A DNA stretch of 64,000 bases from Eublepharis macularius (taxonomy: Eukaryota; Chordata; Lepidosauria; Squamata; Eublepharidae): NCBI RefSeq assembly GCF_028583425.1, contig NC_072802.1:15819926-15883925 (forward strand), in the 5' to 3' direction. A program made the position numbers and the translations under genes. The notes beneath the pieces were generated by a model. That model was given only the letters and a program-made list of their open reading frames with translations, did no database searches and was not told where the DNA came from. This document shows, piece after piece, positions 54,380 through 63,683 of this stretch. The stretch's first letter is position 1, and every line of letters begins with the position of its first letter.

Positions 54380-54531
54380 TCATTATGTTTATTGAGGCTG
54401 CTGCCATAGGCCAAAAATCGGCACAAGTTATATTAAGATTTTTTCATACCATTTTTTCATTATAATGCCAGCGGCTCTTAAATTATATCAGGCCAAATTT
54501 GTATCTCATTTTCTATATGGGATGATATTAG

Positions 54532-54551
54532 GGTCGATTCCACACTACCTT
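54532..54551 (+). repeat. Harbinger left terminal inverted repeat
   Basis: GGTCGATTCCACACTACCTT, an exact complement of the right end; preceded by the duplicated target TAG. Confidence 0.95.
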
Positions 54552-54783
54552 GTTTTAGCGCTAGTTTTTCGCTGCCGCCGCGCTACTCATTCCTCTGTTC
54601 ACACGTTTTTTAAAAAAAATCGTTATGGTGTCGCTACGGCGTCGCAGCAGACCACCGCGATTTCATCGCGCTATGAGCTCATTAAATCTCCCACCCCCCA
54701 AAGCATCACCCAATCAGTACGCACCCCTCATCTCCGCGGCCCCGCCCACGCACTCAAAGGGGGAAAAAAAGAAGGGCAATTCA

Positions 54784-54795
54784 TCGGTATGCCGA
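54784..54795. promoter_or_regulatory. Subterminal palindrome, left copy
   Basis: TCGGTATGCCGA, 252 bp inside the left end. The same core recurs at 59852-59865 and 63096-63109. Its placement near both ends and near a gene start suggests a binding site for the transposase or a Myb-like protein; this is inference. Confidence 0.5.
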
Positions 54796-55379
54796 CACCT
54801 TGACTCAGTCAACCTCCATGCACCTACCCGGAATTAGAACGGATCGCTTAGGGACATTTTTCGGTGCAAGCTGTCATGTCAGCTTTCGGCTTGACTGCCC
54901 CGTCATGTTGCAAGAGTGGATCCCCAGATGAAAGCCGGGGAGAATGATGCATGGGATGGACAAGGATGTTGACTGCCCCTCACGGAACCAGTTTCATGTA
55001 GTGTGGAAACAGGTGTCCGCTGTGGGTGACGCCTCCCCCATCACAGGCGATCATCCACCTTAATCAGAAGATATATTTCTTGGTCATTGCATTCTGGAAT
55101 CTGACGTTCCCAATGTCATTATCAATATGCCAACAAGCCGTTCTAGCGAACACATAAAAAGGCTCTAAAGGAAGATATAAAAACATCTTTCTAGCGCATG
55201 CCCCGACCACTTTCAGATCCGTTAATTCCCGCGTAAATTTCACCATCATCTCCCGTGATCCAATGCACGATGCAGGAACTCAGACTTTGAGCCTGGAGCG
55301 CGCATGCTCTGCTATCAGAGAATTACAATCAAGCGGGAAAACGCCAAGAATCAGAAGCTTCTGGTGATCAACAGTTCAA

Positions 55380-57659
55380 ATGACTGAGCTCCGGCCACAG
55401 GTTTCAAGAGGGGTGGCATGGAGGGAGAGGGAAATCCTGGACCTTCTCTCGTTCTGGGGAGAGGAGAAAATACAGGATGCACTGAAGAAAAGTCATAGAA
55501 ATATAGACTACTTTGAGCGCATCGCCGTTCAGATGGCCTCCCGGGGACATAAGAGGTCGGCGACAGAATGCAGATCCAAGACGAAAACAATGAGGCTAGA
55601 ATATAAGAAGGTGGTGGCACATAACGGTATCTCAGGAAATGCTCCCATAACCTGCCCATATTACAGGGAGCTGAACAGCATTCTGCGGGGGGATGCAAGC
55701 GTCAAACCGAGGCGTGTTGCAAGGAGCCTCTGTGTCGAGTCTGTGGCACAGCATGTTCTCCCCACGGTGCCCTGCTATGACGGGTCAGAGGAGCTTTTCT
55801 CGCACGATCTGATAACCATTGATCGTGAGCAGGTTAGAAGTTCCACCCCCTCCCCCAGAGGTGAGTAAGGCTGAAAAAAGCATTTTTATTGGGGGGGAAA
55901 CAGCAGGATCTCACTACTGAGGATATTTGTCCCTTGTTTCAACTTTCCTCAGATGGCGGTGTGGGGTTGGCACAGGCGGCACCAGAGAATGACCTAGATG
56001 TCACAGTGGATGGCCTTGCTGACTGTGGTGAGTACCAAAATTTGGAACCTGTCACCAACTCAGATGCAGGAAGAAGTCTTTGATGAAACTGGACAAGGGG
56101 TTCCAATATAACTTTCTTTATAATTCCAGAGGAGTCAGCCGTGTTACTCCGTAGTTGCAAAATCAAAAAGAGTCCAGCAGCACCTTTAAGACAAACCAAC
56201 TTTACTGTAGCATGAGCTTTCGAAAATCACAGTGCTCTTCGTCAGATGCATGTTTCTGCAACATGCCTCTGACGAGGAGAACTGGATTCTCGAGAGCTTA
56301 TGCCACTTTAATTTTGTTTTGTCTTAAAGGTGCTGCTGGACTCTTTGATTTTCCTTATAATTATCACCACCCCATGGCCACCCAAGACCCATGTGTTCAG
56401 TTGGGTGGTTTGATTAAACGGAACACTGGATCTCCCAGCAAGCCAAACACTTTCTAATCAGTGTGCCCAGACAGTTGTCTTATTTGAAGCAATATTCACA
56501 TGTTGCTAATTGTCGGCCCTGGAAAACATCAATGGTTAAATGTTGCAGACCATTAAGATCCATGAGCAACATAGGTTTACACATGTCTCTCTAACATCGC
56601 TCATGTTCAATCATGTTGCTATGCACTCTCTTCAGAGGCGGAGGAACCGTGTCCTGATGCTCAGGAGGAACCACAGAGTGACGGCGACTCAAGCTCATTG
56701 CAGCAAGGTGGCGGAAAGGGTGAGTTCGGACACATGGAAGCTTGTGACATCTCAGTGACGAAAGTCACATTCATAAATCTGTTGTTTTATTAATCCTCAT
56801 TTTACAGAAGGATAGAATGATGCTCGGTATTGTCTTTTTCAAATTTTTATAACGGAATAAGTGATTTTCTGAAAACAGGCAACAAAGGAGAATTTCATAT
56901 TCACATGGTGCTTACTCTGCTCGTTATCGGAAAACAGAGCACGCGTGTGGTGGGTTATGAGTGTTTTGTTCAGGGAATGAGTGTCATGACTGAAGTGCAA
57001 CATTCTCCCACTGTGGGTTTTTCTTCCTGTGCTGAGATTTTAACATATGAGATTATTTTGCCACTGTTTGCTTCTAGAATCAATTTGTGCTCGATGGTTC
57101 TTGTTTCCCTACCACTTTGCCGAACAACAGTGGTCCAGACCCTTGGTCCATGGTGATGCGCTGTTCTGAGCTGACAATGACTGTTTTCTTTGTGTCTCCT
57201 TCAGATTCCACATCAACATCCATGGCTGAGGCTTCCCCAGGGTCACGCCTTGAACGTATAAAGAGCAGAAGACGGAGAAATGCGGGATTGTTTGCAGTCG
57301 CTGATAAGATGATCAGTCAGTCAGGGGAGGAGCATAAGGCCCAAATTGCTGAATGGCGCATTGACAGGGAGGAAAGCGTAAGGTGGCATGATGAGGGAAA
57401 AAAAATTCAAAATGATTTTATTGAGGCAACACGTCAGGAGAGCATATACTTTAGGCGGGCGTGGGATGATAACCTTCAGGTCATGCAGTCTGCTGTCCTG
57501 ACACTGCAAACTCTTGGTGAAATTCTGGTCAATCAACAGAGGGCGAAATCTCCAAAGGCAAAGGCCTTGCAGGATACTGCCACAGAGAACATTGCACCGC
57601 GTTTGGGTGTAGCCAAACGTGCCTGTGTTGGCCGTGCCAGAGCTAGACTGACTCTCTAG
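55380..57659 (+). CDS. Harbinger Myb/SANT-like DNA-binding protein 1 (four exons)
   Basis: Exons 55380-55860, 55953-56027, 56636-56719 and 57205-57659 join in one frame of 364 codons. All three introns are phase 1, with GTGAGT donors and pyrimidine-AG acceptors. Residues about 14-110 form a trihelix-type Myb/SANT domain ('WREREILDLLSFWGEEKI', 'RSATECRSKTKTMRLEYKKV', 'YYRELNSILRGD'). An acidic, serine-rich middle follows, then a basic/helical C-terminal part ('RLERIKSRRRRNAGLFAV', 'WRIDREESVRWHDEGKK') resembling the C-terminal helix of Harbinger Myb partners. AATAAA follows at 57851. In known Harbingers such a protein binds the transposase and transposon ends; that role here is inferred. Intron 2 holds a hammerhead-type repeat. 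Confidence 0.8.
56127..56350. repeat. Hammerhead-type inverted repeat (family 2) in an intron
   Basis: 'ttccagaggagtcagccgtg' to 'ttaaaggtgctgctggactc', 224 bp, nearly palindromic. It is the best preserved of seven relatives in the window and lies within intron 2 of the plus-strand Myb gene. Confidence 0.7.
56210..56249 (-). ncRNA. Hammerhead ribozyme-like motif, type 2
   Basis: On the minus strand: GCAT, CTGACGA, a weak stem II (with G-U pairs), CGAAA, GCTC, ATGC. GCAT and ATGC form stem I; A-GC-U forms a two-base self-complementary stem III. One extra base precedes stem II. A second half-site on the plus strand starts at CTGACGA 56269-56275, but its last box is GAGA instead of GAAA. Confidence 0.5.
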
Positions 57660-57850
57660 TGTTTCATTGACATGTCAGAACAGCACGCTATCTTTGGCCT
57701 TCTGTCATATGTGTTGCATGCTCCAATCATTTGGTGGCTGATCGTTTTGTGTTTGTGGTGGGAAACAAATTTATCTTATTACTGAAAAGTTAACTGGAAA
57801 TTAAAATTAAAAATGCATCACAGCACCTTGTCTTGACCAACAATGAACAC

Positions 57851-57893
57851 AATAAACTTTACTGTTAAACCACATAAACCTGTTTTTTTTATT
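57851..57893. promoter_or_regulatory. Facing polyadenylation signals of the convergent Myb genes
   Basis: AATAAA on the plus strand (57851-57856) and on the minus strand (57893-57888) lie 31 bp apart between the two stop codons (57659 and 57908). Transcripts of the two genes would converge or overlap at their 3' ends. Confidence 0.6.
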
Positions 57894-57907
57894 AAATGAG
57901 AGAAACT

Positions 57908-59840
57908 TTATATTTCAGGAAGAGGGTCTGGAAGCCTGGCAGGCACTCGTGTCTCCTCTACTTCTCGGAGGCGCCTCTCCACATTGTCCAAACGCCTGCC
58001 AAAACGCATCATGCGTCCCTCGTTGGTGGACATTCTTCTCTGGATGCTGTTCACTGAACAGTAAAAAAAGGAACCTCATGACTATGAGGATTTTTATTTC
58101 TTACAGGTGGGAGGGCGGGAATCCAAACTAATCCACTTACGTGTGGCAGAGAGGCGCCGGTCCATACTGTCCAGATTCCTAAGGACATCATCAATAGTGT
58201 GCGTTGACACTGGCTGCTCTGCGGTTTGCTGTGTGTCACTAGAGGGGCCGGGTTGCGGTGAGGGTCGTGTCTCGTGCACATCCTCAGTCTCCCCTGTGAG
58301 GGCCACAGGAAAAGAAATGTCACATTGAGGTCACGCAAAACTCGATTTTACCAAATAGCATCGTGATTCTTCAATGCACTGTTATCAAGTTCAAAGAACA
58401 TGCCCAGTACCAACAGCAAAAGTGCCAATTCAAGGTTTCATGACGATATTGGTTGTTGATCACTGAGTGGAAGAAATAAATATTCTTTCGAGTGATGCAA
58501 AAGACGACACCCCATTTGGTTAACTTGTGCAGAGTTATGGGGGGGTGTAGCTTGGCAAATTGAACATGATCTTTGTGCATACATAGAGGTGGGTCCATAA
58601 TTGAGAGATAATCACTTTTCATGCTCTCAATCACAGCAACTCTGATAAAGACTGGGTTTCAAATGCTTCAAGGGAGGAATATATATTGCATGTCTTCAGA
58701 ATGCTGAGAAATAGTGTCAAGATAACAATTATATCAATTGATACATGGGTGCTGTTATGCCAACAAACCAAACAAACTATGCATGCAAATTTTTAAGAAT
58801 TAGTTGTGGGTTTTCCAAACAATGACAGATGCATGAAATCTGATTGATTATGTCTGCTCACCTGCATGGGCGTCCTCTGGCTCCACAGCAGCGCTCCCTG
58901 GAGAGGCCTCCTCCTCAGTTGGGTGCTCTGTCGCCTCCTCTGTCTCCTCCTGCGACTCAGCCTCCACCTGAGGCTCGTCTTGGCGGCGAAGAAGAGCTGT
59001 AAACCAGGCAAAACAGAACAGTGAATCACCACCACCGCATTTTTGGAGAAGGGCAGAACATTACATCCTGTCGTTTGAGGGGCATCAAGATTGTTCCCAA
59101 TAAAGGTCCCCCATCGCATGATGCTGACTAATTCCCTGGGCATTTTGAGCACACGGTTTATTTTTGGCTAGGATCATGCCAATCATTTGCTGTCTGCCCC
59201 TCTTTCTCCAAATTTGCACCTTGACGGTAAGCACAAAAATGTCTAAAGCATAGCACTGGTTGGATAAGCATGTATGAAGGGAATTTGGAGGGTTCTATTT
59301 GCTGAGGGTGGCATTCAAAAGTCGTGTCATAATATGGGTGCTATTCAGTCTTATGAATCGAGAGTCTATCAAAACCAGAGATGTGCTAACATTAACACAG
59401 CAGGTGCAATAGTACTGGTTGTTCAAAGGAGTTTTGAATAAACTCGGGATTGGATTGAACCCGCCACCCTCGTAAAAATTGTCTCCACAGCACTCACCAG
59501 CATGATGGCATTTGCTCCAGCTGGGTTTTCCTGCCGCTTCCCAAAGCCTCATCATCTGCGCGAAGTGGGGTGGCCTCGCTCTCTGCCTGGGGATACCTTG
59601 CCATGCCTCCAAGGAGTCAAAGAAGGCTGCCTTTACTCTTTTGAATTTCGAGCGGCATTGCTCCGTGGATCGCTGAAACCCCATCTCTCGCATACGGGAA
59701 GATACGCGGCCAAAAAGATGACGGTTAGGGAGGTGGGTGCTCTTCATCACCTGTCCCGCTTTTCCTGATCGTTGAATGATCTTCAGGAGCGTGTCCACCT
59801 CCGAATCCGTCCAGAAAACACCCTTTCCACTAGAAGCCAT
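57908..59840 (-). CDS. Harbinger Myb/SANT-like DNA-binding protein 2 (four exons)
   Basis: Minus-strand exons 59840-59498, 58996-58862, 58293-58141 and 58053-57908 join in one frame of 258 codons. All introns are phase 1 (donors GTGAGT, GTGAGC and GTAAGT). The start 'MASSGKGVFWTDSEVDTLL' begins the trihelix Myb/SANT domain ('LFGRVSSRMREMGFQRSTEQ', 'CRSKFKRVKAAFFDSLEAW', 'HFAQMMRLWEAAGKPS'). A long acidic stretch ('VEAESQEETEEATEHPTEEE') and a basic C-terminal helix with 'MMRFGRRLDNVERRLREVEE' follow. A palindrome lies 12-25 bp upstream of the ATG. AATAAA at 57893-57888 overlaps the 3' zone of the convergent first Myb gene. It clearly differs in sequence from that protein. Confidence 0.8.
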
Positions 59841-59851
59841 TATCACAGCAG

Positions 59852-59865
59852 GTCGGTATGCCGAC
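59852..59865. promoter_or_regulatory. Palindromic site at the start of Myb-like gene 2
   Basis: GTCGGTATGCCGAC, 12 bp upstream of the ATG at 59840 (minus strand). It shares its core with the two subterminal sites. Its position suits a repressor-type operator or transposase-binding decoy; this is inference. Confidence 0.5.
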
Positions 59866-60059
59866 TGTGTTGTAACACGACTGGGCGCGCGCAGGCGATT
59901 TTGATACTTTCGAAAATCGGCCGGTTTTTTGGGCGGGAGAATCAAGACTACGGATACTCGGATGCACATTTTCGCTGAATAAAATACACCCTTCTTTTTT
60001 TTGGACCCTTGCTCAGCCACCTAAAAATTGAAGTGCACTTTTCCTGCAAGTGATCGCAA

Positions 60060-60290
60060 AACTTTGACAGATTTTTGAAAATCATGATGAGTCCTGTGGC
60101 TCCTTTCAGAAAAACTACTTTTATTGTGGAACAGGCTTCAGAGAATCGATTGCTATTCCTCAGGAGCACGGTATTCGAGAACTTGATTCTCGAAAGCTTA
60201 TTCTACGATTGAAATGGTTAGTCTGAAAGATGCCAAAGGAGTCTTTTTAAGTTCTCCACCACAGACTAACACGGCCAACTCCTCCTCAAC
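60060..60290. repeat. Hammerhead-type inverted repeat (family 2), partly decayed
   Basis: Ends 'cagactaacacggccaactc'. One half keeps stem II GAGAA/TTCTC followed by CGAAAGCTT, but the CUGANGA box is lost. It lies between Myb-like gene 2 and the transposase gene. Confidence 0.55.
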
Positions 60291-61071
60291 TAAGCAAATC
60301 ATGGACACTGTCAATGTGGGCTGTTCCAGAGAACAGCACAGTTCTATTCTCAGCCAGGGGCAAAAACTTTATTATTTTGTTCTTACTTTGCAGTTGGAAA
60401 AATATAGTCTTCCAACAATTGAATAATAGTCCTTGAGAAACATTGACTTTTGGGGACCGGCAGAATAATAAATTTGTTATCAGAGCACCCTTGTTAATTG
60501 ATTAAAAGAAAGGAAAACTTCTTTGTGAATCGCAGCCATTCCCAGTCCCCATGTCCGTGACAATTCAGTGTCCACTAGCCAAAAACACATATTGCAATCT
60601 CATGGAAACAGTATTAATGAAGAAGCGCCTCCACCCGCCAACCAGCCCTGCTAGGCGGAGAAGACACCAGCACATTTAACTCCAAAAGAACGATGTGGCT
60701 GTGTGGTCGATTCCACTTTAGGGGGAGCATTCAACCTGCTGAAGTGTGCATAGTGTACAACATCCTGCAGTCCTGGGGTTGTTGCAACAGCGAGTACCCC
60801 TCACCCTGTTTTCACTCATTTTTCGATACTCCCACATCCATCTTCACAGCAAAGGGCGGCCATCTCTTGAGTCGCATGAGGTGTCTCTGTTCTGACTTAG
60901 AAAATCCTTTCTTTGGCACCAAAAAGCACACGGACAAGCATCAGATTTTTTAAACAAATAACAAGCTTTATGGTTAAGTTTTGCTACAGAAGAGACAAAC
61001 AGCTAAAGAGAGGCATTGTTAAAACACAGGTGAGCATTATTTTTTACCAAGATACCCATATCCAAAGAGAA

Positions 61072-62905
61072 CTACAGTGGTGTGCGGCCAGAAGCCATGT
61101 GCCGAGCCAGGGCTTCACGCACCCGCTTCCCTGCCTCAAGTTGCCCAGCATTAGAGGCAATGTCCTCCTCCTCGTCACACTCAATCCTGACTTCGGCTGG
61201 TGACTGTATTGAAGACAGGACAGGATGTCCCTTCTCTTCGCAGATGTTGTGTAGCACAACGCAAGCTGTCACTACAGAAACCACGTTCTGCTCTCTCACT
61301 TGCAGACGTCTGGAAAGACACCGCCATCTTGATTTCAGACGACCGAAACATCTCTCAACCGTGTTCCTAGCCCGACATAATCGCCGATCAAAATTTCGAT
61401 GATGTTCTGCAACCGCTGACCTCCCGTATGGCTTCATAAGCCAAGGTCGCATGGGGTACGCACCGTCAGCAATAACGAGTGGTGGGACCAAGACACCTTC
61501 CAAGTTGAGGCACGGATTTCCTGGGACAAGTGACCCGGCGTCCATGGCCAGACAAAAGGCAGAATGAGAGAAGACAAAGGCGTCATGATTTTTGCCGCTC
61601 CAGCCCACCTCTGCATCAATGAAACGTCCACTGGCATCTACAGTTCCCTGAAGAAGGATAGATGAAAAGTTTTTGCGGTTTCCATATTGGTCAGGACGAC
61701 CTCCTGGAGCGCATATCGGGATGTGGGATCCATCGATGGCACCAATGCAGTGCGGAAAACCCAAATTCCGAAATCCTTCCATTACCTGTTAAAAGAACAG
61801 AAAGAAAACACAGAGGTAAGCAAATGACAGTGCTTCACATTGATTCCATCCTCGCAGCGACCTTGAGGAACATGGACTCCGTAAAATTTTTAAACGGTTA
61901 TTTTTGGTGAAATGCCAATTGCTATGAGCCCGTGGGGCCACGGGTGAATGTGTGGTCTGAAATTGAGAATGTAAGTTAGAAATTTGGTTTCTGACAGGCG
62001 GGGGCAAAGAAAAGGAAACAGTCAAATCCCAGTACTGCCTTCATTGTGCGCCGAAAGATTCTCTGGCAAGCATGTTCCTTTTTAAAAGAATGCCAACATC
62101 GGAAAGACAGCCAGCCAAAACACACTTCAGAGAAAAAACTGATGGCCGTGGACTCGCACAGCTTGCGTCAACCACCCTTTTATTTGTGGCCTGCATATCT
62201 CGCCCATCATAAGGAACAGCAAGCTTAGAAGGGGCAAGTGTTGGCCGAAACGATTCGGTGGACGGTATAGCGGCAGCACAGCACAGTGGAAAAATAAAAA
62301 TTCTAAGCACTCACCAACCCAATGTCGGGACCGAGACAGACGATTTTGGAAAACAGCTCTACCTCCACGGCAAAACAGAATTCCATCAAGGAGGCTGCCA
62401 CTGTGGAGCGTCCTATCCCAAACAGGTCACTGGCCACTTGAAAGCTGCAGCCATTGGCAAGACACCAAACCGCTACTGCAACTCTTCTTTCTACCGAGAG
62501 AGGAGCGCGCATGGTGGTGGTCTGGCGCTGGAGACGAGGGCGAAGAACCTCCACCAGTTCAAGAAAGGTCGCCTTTGTCATCCTGAATCGCATCATCCAA
62601 GCATGGTCATCCCACTGTTCCGACACTATTCTGTCCCACCAATGGAGGCTCCTTGGGCATACCCAATGCTCCCTTGGCTCCTCCAGCTCCGCCAAAACAT
62701 ACCAGTGTCGTATCTTGTTCCTAGGAGGAGCACGGGCCAGGCGACGGAATGTAGAACGTCGGTGGCGAAAGAAAAGAAGCATTGCTGCCGCACGTCTACG
62801 ACGGGACATGTGCCACCTGTGAAATAGCATCATGGATGTGGTGCATCGCAGCATCATCAAAACTACCTGTGCCATAAGGAACAGGATGGTTTCACGAGGA
62901 GCCAT
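61072..62905 (-). CDS. PIF/Harbinger DDE transposase (two exons)
   Basis: Minus-strand exons 62905-62315 (197 codons) and 61785-61072 (237 codons plus stop) join in phase 0 (donor GTGAGT, acceptor 'gttcttttaacag'), giving 434 codons. The start is the ATG before 'APRETILFLMAQ'; an upstream in-frame ATG at 62938 is the alternative. The N-terminal third is basic ('HMSRRRRAAAMLLFFRHRR'). A helix-turn-helix lies near residues 145-180 ('LANGCSFQVASDLFGIGRST'). The catalytic triad is D215 ('GAIDGSHI'), D304 ('VIADGAYP') and E341 ('NTVERCFGRLK'), the DDE_4/HARBI1 type. The enzyme should cut at the ends and insert at 3-bp targets. All catalytic residues are present. Confidence 0.88.
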
Positions 62906-63095
62906 GATGTGCAATCCGAAAACCCACCTACTACCCACAGAGATGAAAACTCCACGGACCCAATATCAAAAGACATTTCAAAATTGCCCGCCCAAACAGG
63001 GGACCAATCACTGCAGACTATCGATGGCGGGAGGAGAAAGAGCCAATCAGCGCCAAGTACTGGGGTGCGGTTTCGACAGGATATGATAGTATCGT

Positions 63096-63109
63096 GTCGG
63101 TATACCGAC
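63096..63109. promoter_or_regulatory. Subterminal palindrome, right copy
   Basis: GTCGGTATACCGAC, 224 bp inside the right end and about 190 bp upstream of the transposase start. It mirrors the left copy at 54784-54795. Confidence 0.5.
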
Positions 63110-63313
63110 TGCCTAACAAAATTTAAAAAAAAAAAAAAAACCCCGACTTTTCAGAGCAGAACCACGCCCCCAACCGTTCATTGCGGGTTTTATTGAGGGG
63201 ATGTGAACAAGGTGTTGCGCGAAAAAAACGGAAGTCGGAAGGTGATGTGAACACGCGCGTGATTGTTGCGACCTCAGACATGGTGCAATGATATCGGAAA
63301 ACAAGCGGGAGGT

Positions 63314-63333
63314 AAGGTAGTGTGGAATCGACC
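63314..63333 (-). repeat. Harbinger right terminal inverted repeat
   Basis: Exact complement of the left terminus; followed by the duplicated target TAG at 63334-63336. Confidence 0.95.
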
Positions 63334-63683
63334 TAGGTTCTCCATCTTACTCTTATGCCCCATTAGAAAAAGCACAATCCAAATTTTTAAGAGCAGCATT
63401 TGACTTGCCCTGATGTGTCCCAAATGCAAGTCTGCGCCTTGAGTTCGGTATGATTAAAATGTAGGCCAGGATAAGCCTTGCCTCCATTAATTTCTGGTTT
63501 AAGATAAATTATTCGCCTCAAGGTTTAACACCATTCATTCTTTGAGACTGTTTTCCCTGGCTAAAGGCAGTCTTCTATAAGATAATCACCCTAGGCTTCT
63601 CCTTGGAGGCTCTGTTAACAATGGGATTTGACCAGGCAAAGGCCTCCATCAAGCAGCTGGTGCTAGACATCGAATGACAGGAG

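What the first reader, a model, noticed from the sequence alone, without database searches (positions are those of the whole stretch)
54532..63333. A Harbinger transposon with two different Myb-like partners and an intact transposase
Seen: exact 20-bp termini, TAG duplication, and three spliced genes that all read through with no visible defect. Known: animal PIF/Harbinger elements typically carry one transposase gene and one Myb/SANT-like gene, whose product imports the transposase and binds the ends. Inference: a second, distinct Myb-like protein may divide these jobs (end recognition, nuclear import, repression), making this a three-component system that could still be active.
Basis: partly seen in the sequence, partly recalled or inferred. 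Interest (0 to 1): 0.9.

Follow-up and report, generated by a model that had tools for sequence, protein, structure and literature searches.

The report
Gecko Harbinger transposon with two Mybs
This is a complete, recently mobile gecko DNA transposon that carries two related DNA-binding (Myb-like) genes beside its transposase; the related elements examined in the same genome keep the same three genes, whereas most described animal Harbinger transposons carry only one such Myb gene.

Summary
Confirmed and extended. 54532-63333 is a full-length Harbinger-type element, inferred host Eublepharis macularius. It has exact 20-bp TIRs, a 3-bp TSD and three spliced, open genes: MybA, MybB and a DDE transposase (MybB's last exon corrected here). 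Copies up to 99.8% identical sit elsewhere; 24 of 24 insertions with both ends found have matching TSDs; one insertion has a paralogous empty site. MybB is no recent intruder: seven other elements read all keep MybA and MybB, in two gene orders. MybA, MybB and Tnp trees give the same main groups, MybA and MybB are separate clades, and older copies show dN/dS of 0.11-0.32 for all three genes. So a second Myb as an inherited, selected component is well supported. What it does is inferred: the palindrome TCGGTATRCCGA lies near both ends and 12 bp before MybB, and recurs there in 5 of 7 relatives; GATGTGAACA is a second subterminal repeat. I propose one motif per Myb. Targets fit A-C|NWN|G-T, not the published group rules. 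New variant of a known kind; function untested.

The parts
54529..54531 (.). left TSD, TAG
54532..54551 (+). left terminal inverted repeat, 20 bp exact
   Evidence: I3
54596..54603 (-). left subterminal TGTTCACA (TGTGAACA inverted)
54784..54795 (.). palindrome TCGGTATGCCGA, left subterminal, 585 bp before the MybA ATG
   Evidence: exact in 5 of 6 derivatives
55380..55860 (+). MybA exon 1 (Myb_DNA-bind_4)
55953..56027 (+). MybA exon 2
56636..56719 (+). MybA exon 3
57205..57659 (+). MybA exon 4, with KSRRRR and a predicted long C-terminal helix
   Evidence: model of P0005, 99% identical
57908..58053 (-). MybB exon 4 (corrected), predicted long C-terminal helix by relation to P0001
58141..58293 (-). 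MybB exon 3
58862..58996 (-). MybB exon 2
59498..59840 (-). MybB exon 1 (Myb_DNA-bind_4)
59853..59864 (.). palindrome TCGGTATGCCGA, 12 bp before the MybB ATG
   Evidence: place recurs in 5 of 7 relatives
61072..61785 (-). Tnp exon 2, DDE_Tnp_4 domain with D, D, E
62315..62905 (-). Tnp exon 1, basic N-terminal region, weak HTH match
63097..63108 (.). palindrome TCGGTATACCGA, right subterminal, about 190 bp before the Tnp ATG
   Evidence: exact in 5 of 6 derivatives
63200..63209 (+). right subterminal GATGTGAACA, copy 1
   Evidence: (D18)
63244..63253 (+). right subterminal GATGTGAACA, copy 2, 44 bp on
   Evidence: (D18)
63314..63333 (-). right terminal inverted repeat
   Evidence: I3
63334..63336 (.). 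right TSD, TAG

Best explanation
A complete cut-and-paste Harbinger-type transposon whose mobile kit has three proteins. Shown by sequence: a DDE transposase and two paralogous trihelix-Myb proteins, MybA and MybB, were together before the relatives examined here split, have stayed together through a change of gene order, and are each kept by purifying selection within the family; copies of this family inserted recently, with 3-bp duplications, at A-C|NWN|G-T targets. Inferred: both Mybs bind the element, probably at different subterminal motifs. MybA, the form with annotated relatives in other lizards, most likely does the classical job of holding the transposase at the ends. MybB, whose relative has a predicted 60-residue C-terminal helix that could pair, most likely binds the palindrome TCGGTATRCCGA found near both ends and right before its own start codon, so it would help build the end complex and also tune its own promoter, perhaps all three. 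Likelihood: the three-gene unit as an inherited, selected system about 0.85; the specific motif-to-protein pairing about 0.35.
For: Co-retention: MybA, MybB and Tnp lie together in L029-L034 (6 of 6); L041, fetched from beside a listed Tnp hit, holds MybA and MybB. By their proteins these are at least six groups, L031 and L034 being close. 117 of the 150 scored Tnp hits have a listed MybB hit within 9.5 kb, 116 on the same strand, in two distance classes: 47 under 2.5 kb and 68 at 4-7 kb. Orders: A> <B <T (window, L029, L030, L041) and <B A> <T (L031-L034). MybA and MybB are two clades (100/100), and MybA, MybB and Tnp trees of 9 rows each give the same main groups. dN/dS against the window for L020-L028: 0.12-0.29 MybA, 0.11-0.32 MybB (exon 1 only), 0.17-0.30 Tnp. 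Mobility: nine copies at 97.7-99.8% identity, 24 of 24 matched TSDs, an empty site. Motif: three sites in 64 kb; shuffle mean 0.09 strand matches against 6 seen, at up to 1 mismatch; within 2 mismatches, starting 24-28 bp before the MybB ATG, in 5 of 7 relatives, while 0 of 5000 shuffles and 0 of 5000 sets of random windows reached 3.
Against: No binding, expression or excision data. Every element read comes from one genome; MybB matches in the protein search were 4, all E. macularius (words-based search), so the kit may be local. 33 of 150 Tnp hits have no listed MybB, and one of the 117 pairings (distance -7003) wrongly joins L041's Tnp to the neighbouring L011 element. The palindrome was chosen after seeing it; L031 and L034 are close, so 5 of 7 is at most about 4 of 6 independent; L033 has 3 mismatches and L032 5. 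Within the family the sites are not significantly slower than other noncoding DNA: 17 of 696 cells differ (2.4% against 5.4%), and 226 of 2000 random triples were as low. Exact GATGTGAACA was found in one (L031) of the four order-II elements, at a place not tied to an end. Either Myb could bind the palindrome: both have a predicted long C-terminal helix, and pairing was not modelled. Ten of 21 copies, no more, have all three genes open.
Confidence: 0.75

Rival explanations
1. MybB is chiefly a regulator (a self-limiting repressor, or an activator) of the element's promoters and is not part of the transposition machinery; MybA plus Tnp suffice, as in two-gene Harbingers.
For: The palindrome sits 12 bp before the MybB ATG, and its place there recurs in 5 of 7 relatives; one copy lies upstream of each gene.
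Against: The palindrome is also near both ends and present in gene-less derivatives, 10 of 12 sites exact; weak, because those derivatives are close to each other.
Confidence: 0.3
2. MybB is a recent passenger: a host Myb gene or another element caught inside this one.
For: MybA and MybB are far apart in sequence (32-37% over short stretches); the protein search found MybB kin in one species only.
Against: Present in the seven other elements read, with a tree in step with Tnp and MybA, in two gene orders, and with low dN/dS.
Confidence: 0.04
3. Ordinary two-protein Harbinger biology with redundancy: the two Mybs are interchangeable duplicates.
For: Same domain family and same overall build, trihelix plus long C-terminal helix.
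Against: In 7 of 7 elements displayed the two keep different clade-specific residues in the presumed recognition helix (ECRxKTKxMRLxYK against EQCRSKFKRVKxxF) although synonymous sites are saturated between most of them.
Confidence: 0.12

Closest known systems
Harbinger3_DR (zebrafish; reconstructed element)
   Same: DDE transposase plus a Myb-like protein that partners the transposase and binds a 9-bp subterminal motif (PMC9710019, passages).
   Different: One Myb-like gene there, two paralogous ones here; no sequence comparison was made here.
NuwaI and NuwaII groups of the PHIS superfamily (PMC4482050, passages)
   Same: Transposase plus Myb/SANT protein, short TIRs, 3-bp TSDs (NuwaII most likely 3 bp).
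   Different: TSDs here are NWN between A-C and G-T, not CWG or C|TNA|G; three genes.
Harbinger-Snek of sea kraits (PMC8437027, passages)
   Same: A Harbinger expansion in a squamate.
   Different: Two proteins, marine horizontal origin; here the transposase has gecko relatives at about 50%.
Rice Ping/Pong with mPing (PMC2836001, passages)
   Same: Separate transposase and Myb-like ORF1; gene-less derivatives mobilised in trans; extended target preference.
   Different: Two genes; TSD usually TAA or TTA.
TET-bearing Harbinger families (PHISTA) of rust fungi; HarbingerS with a SET gene (PMC12730594, passages)
   Same: Harbinger-type elements that gained extra genes, three proteins in PHISTA.
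   Different: Their extra proteins are a dioxygenase, a third protein without a Myb/SANT domain, or a methyltransferase; here the extra gene is a second Myb.

Membership tests
PHIS superfamily (PIF/Harbinger-like), broad sense | DDE transposase of the DDE_Tnp_4 type | tested here: met
   PF13359 5.7e-32; D, D, E present in 25, 26 and 26 of 26 rows
PHIS superfamily (PIF/Harbinger-like), broad sense | TIRs and 3-bp target duplication (most groups) | tested here: met
   24 of 24 insertions with both ends found; empty site
PIF/Harbinger group, narrow sense (PMC4482050) | TWA target duplication | tested here: not met
   1 of 24 tabulated TSDs, a table that counts L021/L022 once and adds L029
PIF/Harbinger group, narrow sense (PMC4482050) | transposase with HTH motif | tested here: inconclusive
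   HTH_23 at E 0.015, below Pfam's cut-off
two-gene Harbinger or Nuwa elements | one Myb/SANT partner gene | tested here: not met
   two Myb_DNA-bind_4 genes in the window; the same domain in 4 MybB and 2 MybA first exons of relatives
NuwaI | CWG target duplication | tested here: not met
   3 of 24
NuwaII | C|TNA|G target | tested here: not met
   1 of 24 is TNA
Pangu | ANT target duplication | tested here: not met
   2 of 24
NuwaI / NuwaII | transposase falls in the Nuwa clade | not tested
   no set of named transposases of these groups was at hand
Harbinger3_DR-like mechanism | Myb protein binds the transposase and a subterminal motif | not testable with these tools
   needs biochemistry

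The most novel reading that the evidence does not exclude
A lineage of Harbinger transposons has evolved an obligate three-protein machine with two specialised Myb paralogs, each reading its own subterminal code, one of them also reading an operator at its own promoter, so that end recognition and copy-number control are coupled; this lineage has radiated into several co-existing families in one gecko genome.
Probability: 0.3. Interest if true: 0.82.

Novelty: new variant of a known kind. Interest (0 to 1): 0.62.

Why it matters
A 2022 paper says that all PIF elements known in plants and animals have two genes (PMC9710019, abstract passage); fungal Harbinger-type elements with extra genes of other kinds are in print (PMC12730594, passages). 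A second, conserved Myb in an animal lineage offers a natural two-paralog test of which Myb job is which (end recognition, partner binding, control), in a genome with recent copies whose three genes are open. It also matters for annotation: NCBI names for such proteins in this species include myb/SANT-like domain-containing protein 7, zinc finger and SCAN domain-containing protein 29-like and putative nuclease HARBI1.

Tried and rejected
Rejected: MybB as a recent nested element. Rejected: my first MybB last exon (still used in the search; corrected); the MybB dN/dS uses exon 1 only and is not affected. Rejected: TAG as a fixed target. Little gain: PDB sequence search (both Mybs nearest to plant GT-1; none for Tnp) and Foldseek for the MybB relative (no match at E 0.001 or better; best 0.048, Sap1, then GT-1). 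Motif constraint within the family is not significant by itself. Papers: in the listings of searches (titles and starts of abstracts) I saw none that names a Harbinger with two Myb genes; six papers were read in passages, none in full. That is open-licence PMC only, not Repbase Reports. Dropped from counts: L019, L020 and L026 (an end not found in the fetched piece) have no TSD score; L021 and L022 share flanks; the target counts use 24 rows with both of these and without L029, the TSD table 24 entries with them as one and with L029; 75 of 150 MybA hits were typed into.

Full report
The element. The stretch 54532-63333 has 20-bp inverted ends, identical in complement, flanked by TAG on both sides. 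Three genes read through when spliced at GT..AG: MybA on the + strand (364 aa), MybB on the - strand (258 aa) and a transposase, Tnp, on the - strand (434 aa). MybB's last exon in my first model was wrong; annotated relatives led to the acceptor that gives exon 58053-57908. Pfam places Myb_DNA-bind_4 in the first exon of both Mybs and DDE_Tnp_4 in Tnp exon 2. The host is inferred to be Eublepharis macularius: the best protein matches bear that name and lie on contigs whose lengths nearly equal those of G000. Proteins so named are 99% identical to MybA over 364 aa and 98% identical to Tnp over 434 aa, which supports those two gene models.

Copies and mobility. Besides the window's own copy, 22 left ends match over nearly the whole query at 81-100% identity, and 17 shorter ones follow, among 40 scored of 210 candidates. 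The right-end search gives 22 full matches, the window's included, among 40 scored of 342. Twenty copies were fetched; identity to the window runs from 99.8% down to 79-87% by block in L028. Both ends were found in 17 of the 20, all with matching 3-bp TSDs; with the window and six gene-less derivatives of 975-978 bp that is 24 of 24. L012 lies in a repeat: of 40 scored matches to its joined flanks, 2 are its own flanks and 38 run across the junction; one of these, read directly (L042), has a single CAA where L012 has CAA on each side of the element. The three genes are open in 10 of 21 copies (window, L010-L014, L016, L017, L020, L023); L016 and L023 have in-frame deletions, and L020's right end was not found whole. 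Nothing here shows present activity.

Targets. Over 24 rows (L021 and L022 share flanks and are one event) the sites read A at -2 in 21, C or T at -1 in 23, A or T in the middle of the TSD in 22, G or A after it in 21 and T next in 16: A-C|NWN|G-T, a palindrome. PMC4482050 (passages) gives the groups TWA, CWG, C|TNA|G and ANT; in the table of 24 TSDs these are 1, 3, 1 (as TNA) and 2. From memory, not from a call, the zebrafish Harbinger3_DR target centres on ACCWGGT, which would fit the same frame.

Two Mybs, inherited together. Genome searches gave 1442, 1528 and 1204 first-look candidates for MybA, Tnp and MybB, of which 150 each were scored. Six other elements were read, and all hold MybA, MybB and Tnp. 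A seventh, L041, chosen because its MybB was not in the list, holds MybA and MybB beside its listed Tnp, so absence from a list is not absence. By their proteins the seven make at least six groups; L031 and L034 are close. Gene order is A> <B <T in the window, L029, L030 and L041, and <B A> <T in L031-L034. Of 150 Tnp hits, own-family copies included, 117 have a listed MybB hit within 9.5 kb, 47 under 2.5 kb, 68 at 4-7 kb and two others; one of the two, at -7003, is a false pairing of L041's Tnp with its neighbour L011. MybA and MybB form two clades with full support, and trees of MybA, MybB and Tnp (9 rows each, several inner forks weak) give the same main groups. L041's place is unsettled, so which order came first is open.

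Selection. Against the window, L020-L028 give dN/dS 0.12-0.29 for MybA (exons 1 and 4), 0.11-0.32 for MybB (exon 1) and 0.17-0.30 for Tnp. Younger copies have too few changes to judge (MybA of L017 gives 1.49 on six changes; several have no synonymous change). Between families dS is saturated except MybB of L030 (2.8).

Motifs. TCGGTATRCCGA occurs three times in the 64-kb window: 252 bp in from the left end (upstream of MybA), 225 bp in from the right end (upstream of Tnp) and 12 bp before the MybB ATG. In 5 of 7 relatives a match within 2 mismatches starts 24-28 bp before the MybB ATG; L033 has 3 mismatches, L032 has 5. No shuffle (mononucleotide) and no set of random windows out of 5000 each reached three. 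The motif was picked after it was seen, and the relatives are not fully independent. The subterminal copies align with related sequence in L029, and 10 of 12 sites are exact in the six derivatives. Within the family the sites are not significantly slower than other noncoding DNA. A second repeat, GATGTGAACA, occurs twice in the right subterminal region, 44 bp apart, and as one exact plus one 1-mismatch copy at 44 and 42 bp in L029 and L030; a related inverted copy lies near the left end. Among the four order-II elements only L031 has an exact copy, not tied to an end. PMC9710019 (passage) reports that the Harbinger3_DR Myb-like protein binds a 9-bp subterminal motif, so two subterminal motifs beside two Mybs invite a one-to-one pairing; that is inference.

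Proteins. AlphaFold models, of modest mean confidence (66.4 and 71.1), give both Mybs a trihelix domain and a long C-terminal helix with high local confidence: residues 225-327 of P0005 (99% identical to MybA) and 194-253 of P0001 (a MybB relative from another family). The presumed recognition helix differs in a clade-specific way in 7 of 7 elements displayed, and nine transposases displayed share a basic N-terminal stretch, so import by a Myb may not be needed; both points are untested.

Verdict. In detail: the element is an inherited three-gene variant of Harbinger-type transposons. How the two Mybs share the work is not shown.

Noticed in passing
proteins P0022-P0030 and P0061-P0103: Other squamates have annotated MybA-like proteins (521-544 aa in several geckos; RING-Myb fusions in Elgaria and Varanus) and proteins with KRAB plus DDE_Tnp_4 domains. 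In Paroedura, Heteronotia, Sphaerodactylus and Elgaria a protein of each kind is listed with the same longest-contig length, which hints at linked, co-domesticated Harbinger-derived host genes.
   Followed up: partly
L021 and L022 (C9, near 103.78 and 103.44 Mb), L020 nearby: L021 and L022 have the same flanks and TSD, so they look like a segmental duplication, not separate insertions; L020 may belong to it.
   Followed up: partly
C17, C16, C6, C14 and C2 places: Seven matches cover only the last 362 bases of the right end at 95-96%, perhaps a second group of deletion derivatives, closer to the window's family than the 976-bp ones.
   Followed up: no
L011 and L041 (C4, near 158.155 and 158.167 Mb): A copy of this family and an element of another three-gene group lie within about 10 kb of each other.
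   Followed up: partly
56129-56346 and 60177-60284: Related inverted and direct repeats, probably an old interspersed repeat, in MybA intron 2 and between MybB and Tnp.
   Followed up: no
More than a thousand first-look candidates for each gene, with runs of identical scores, suggest that several Harbinger families have expanded in this genome.
   Followed up: partly
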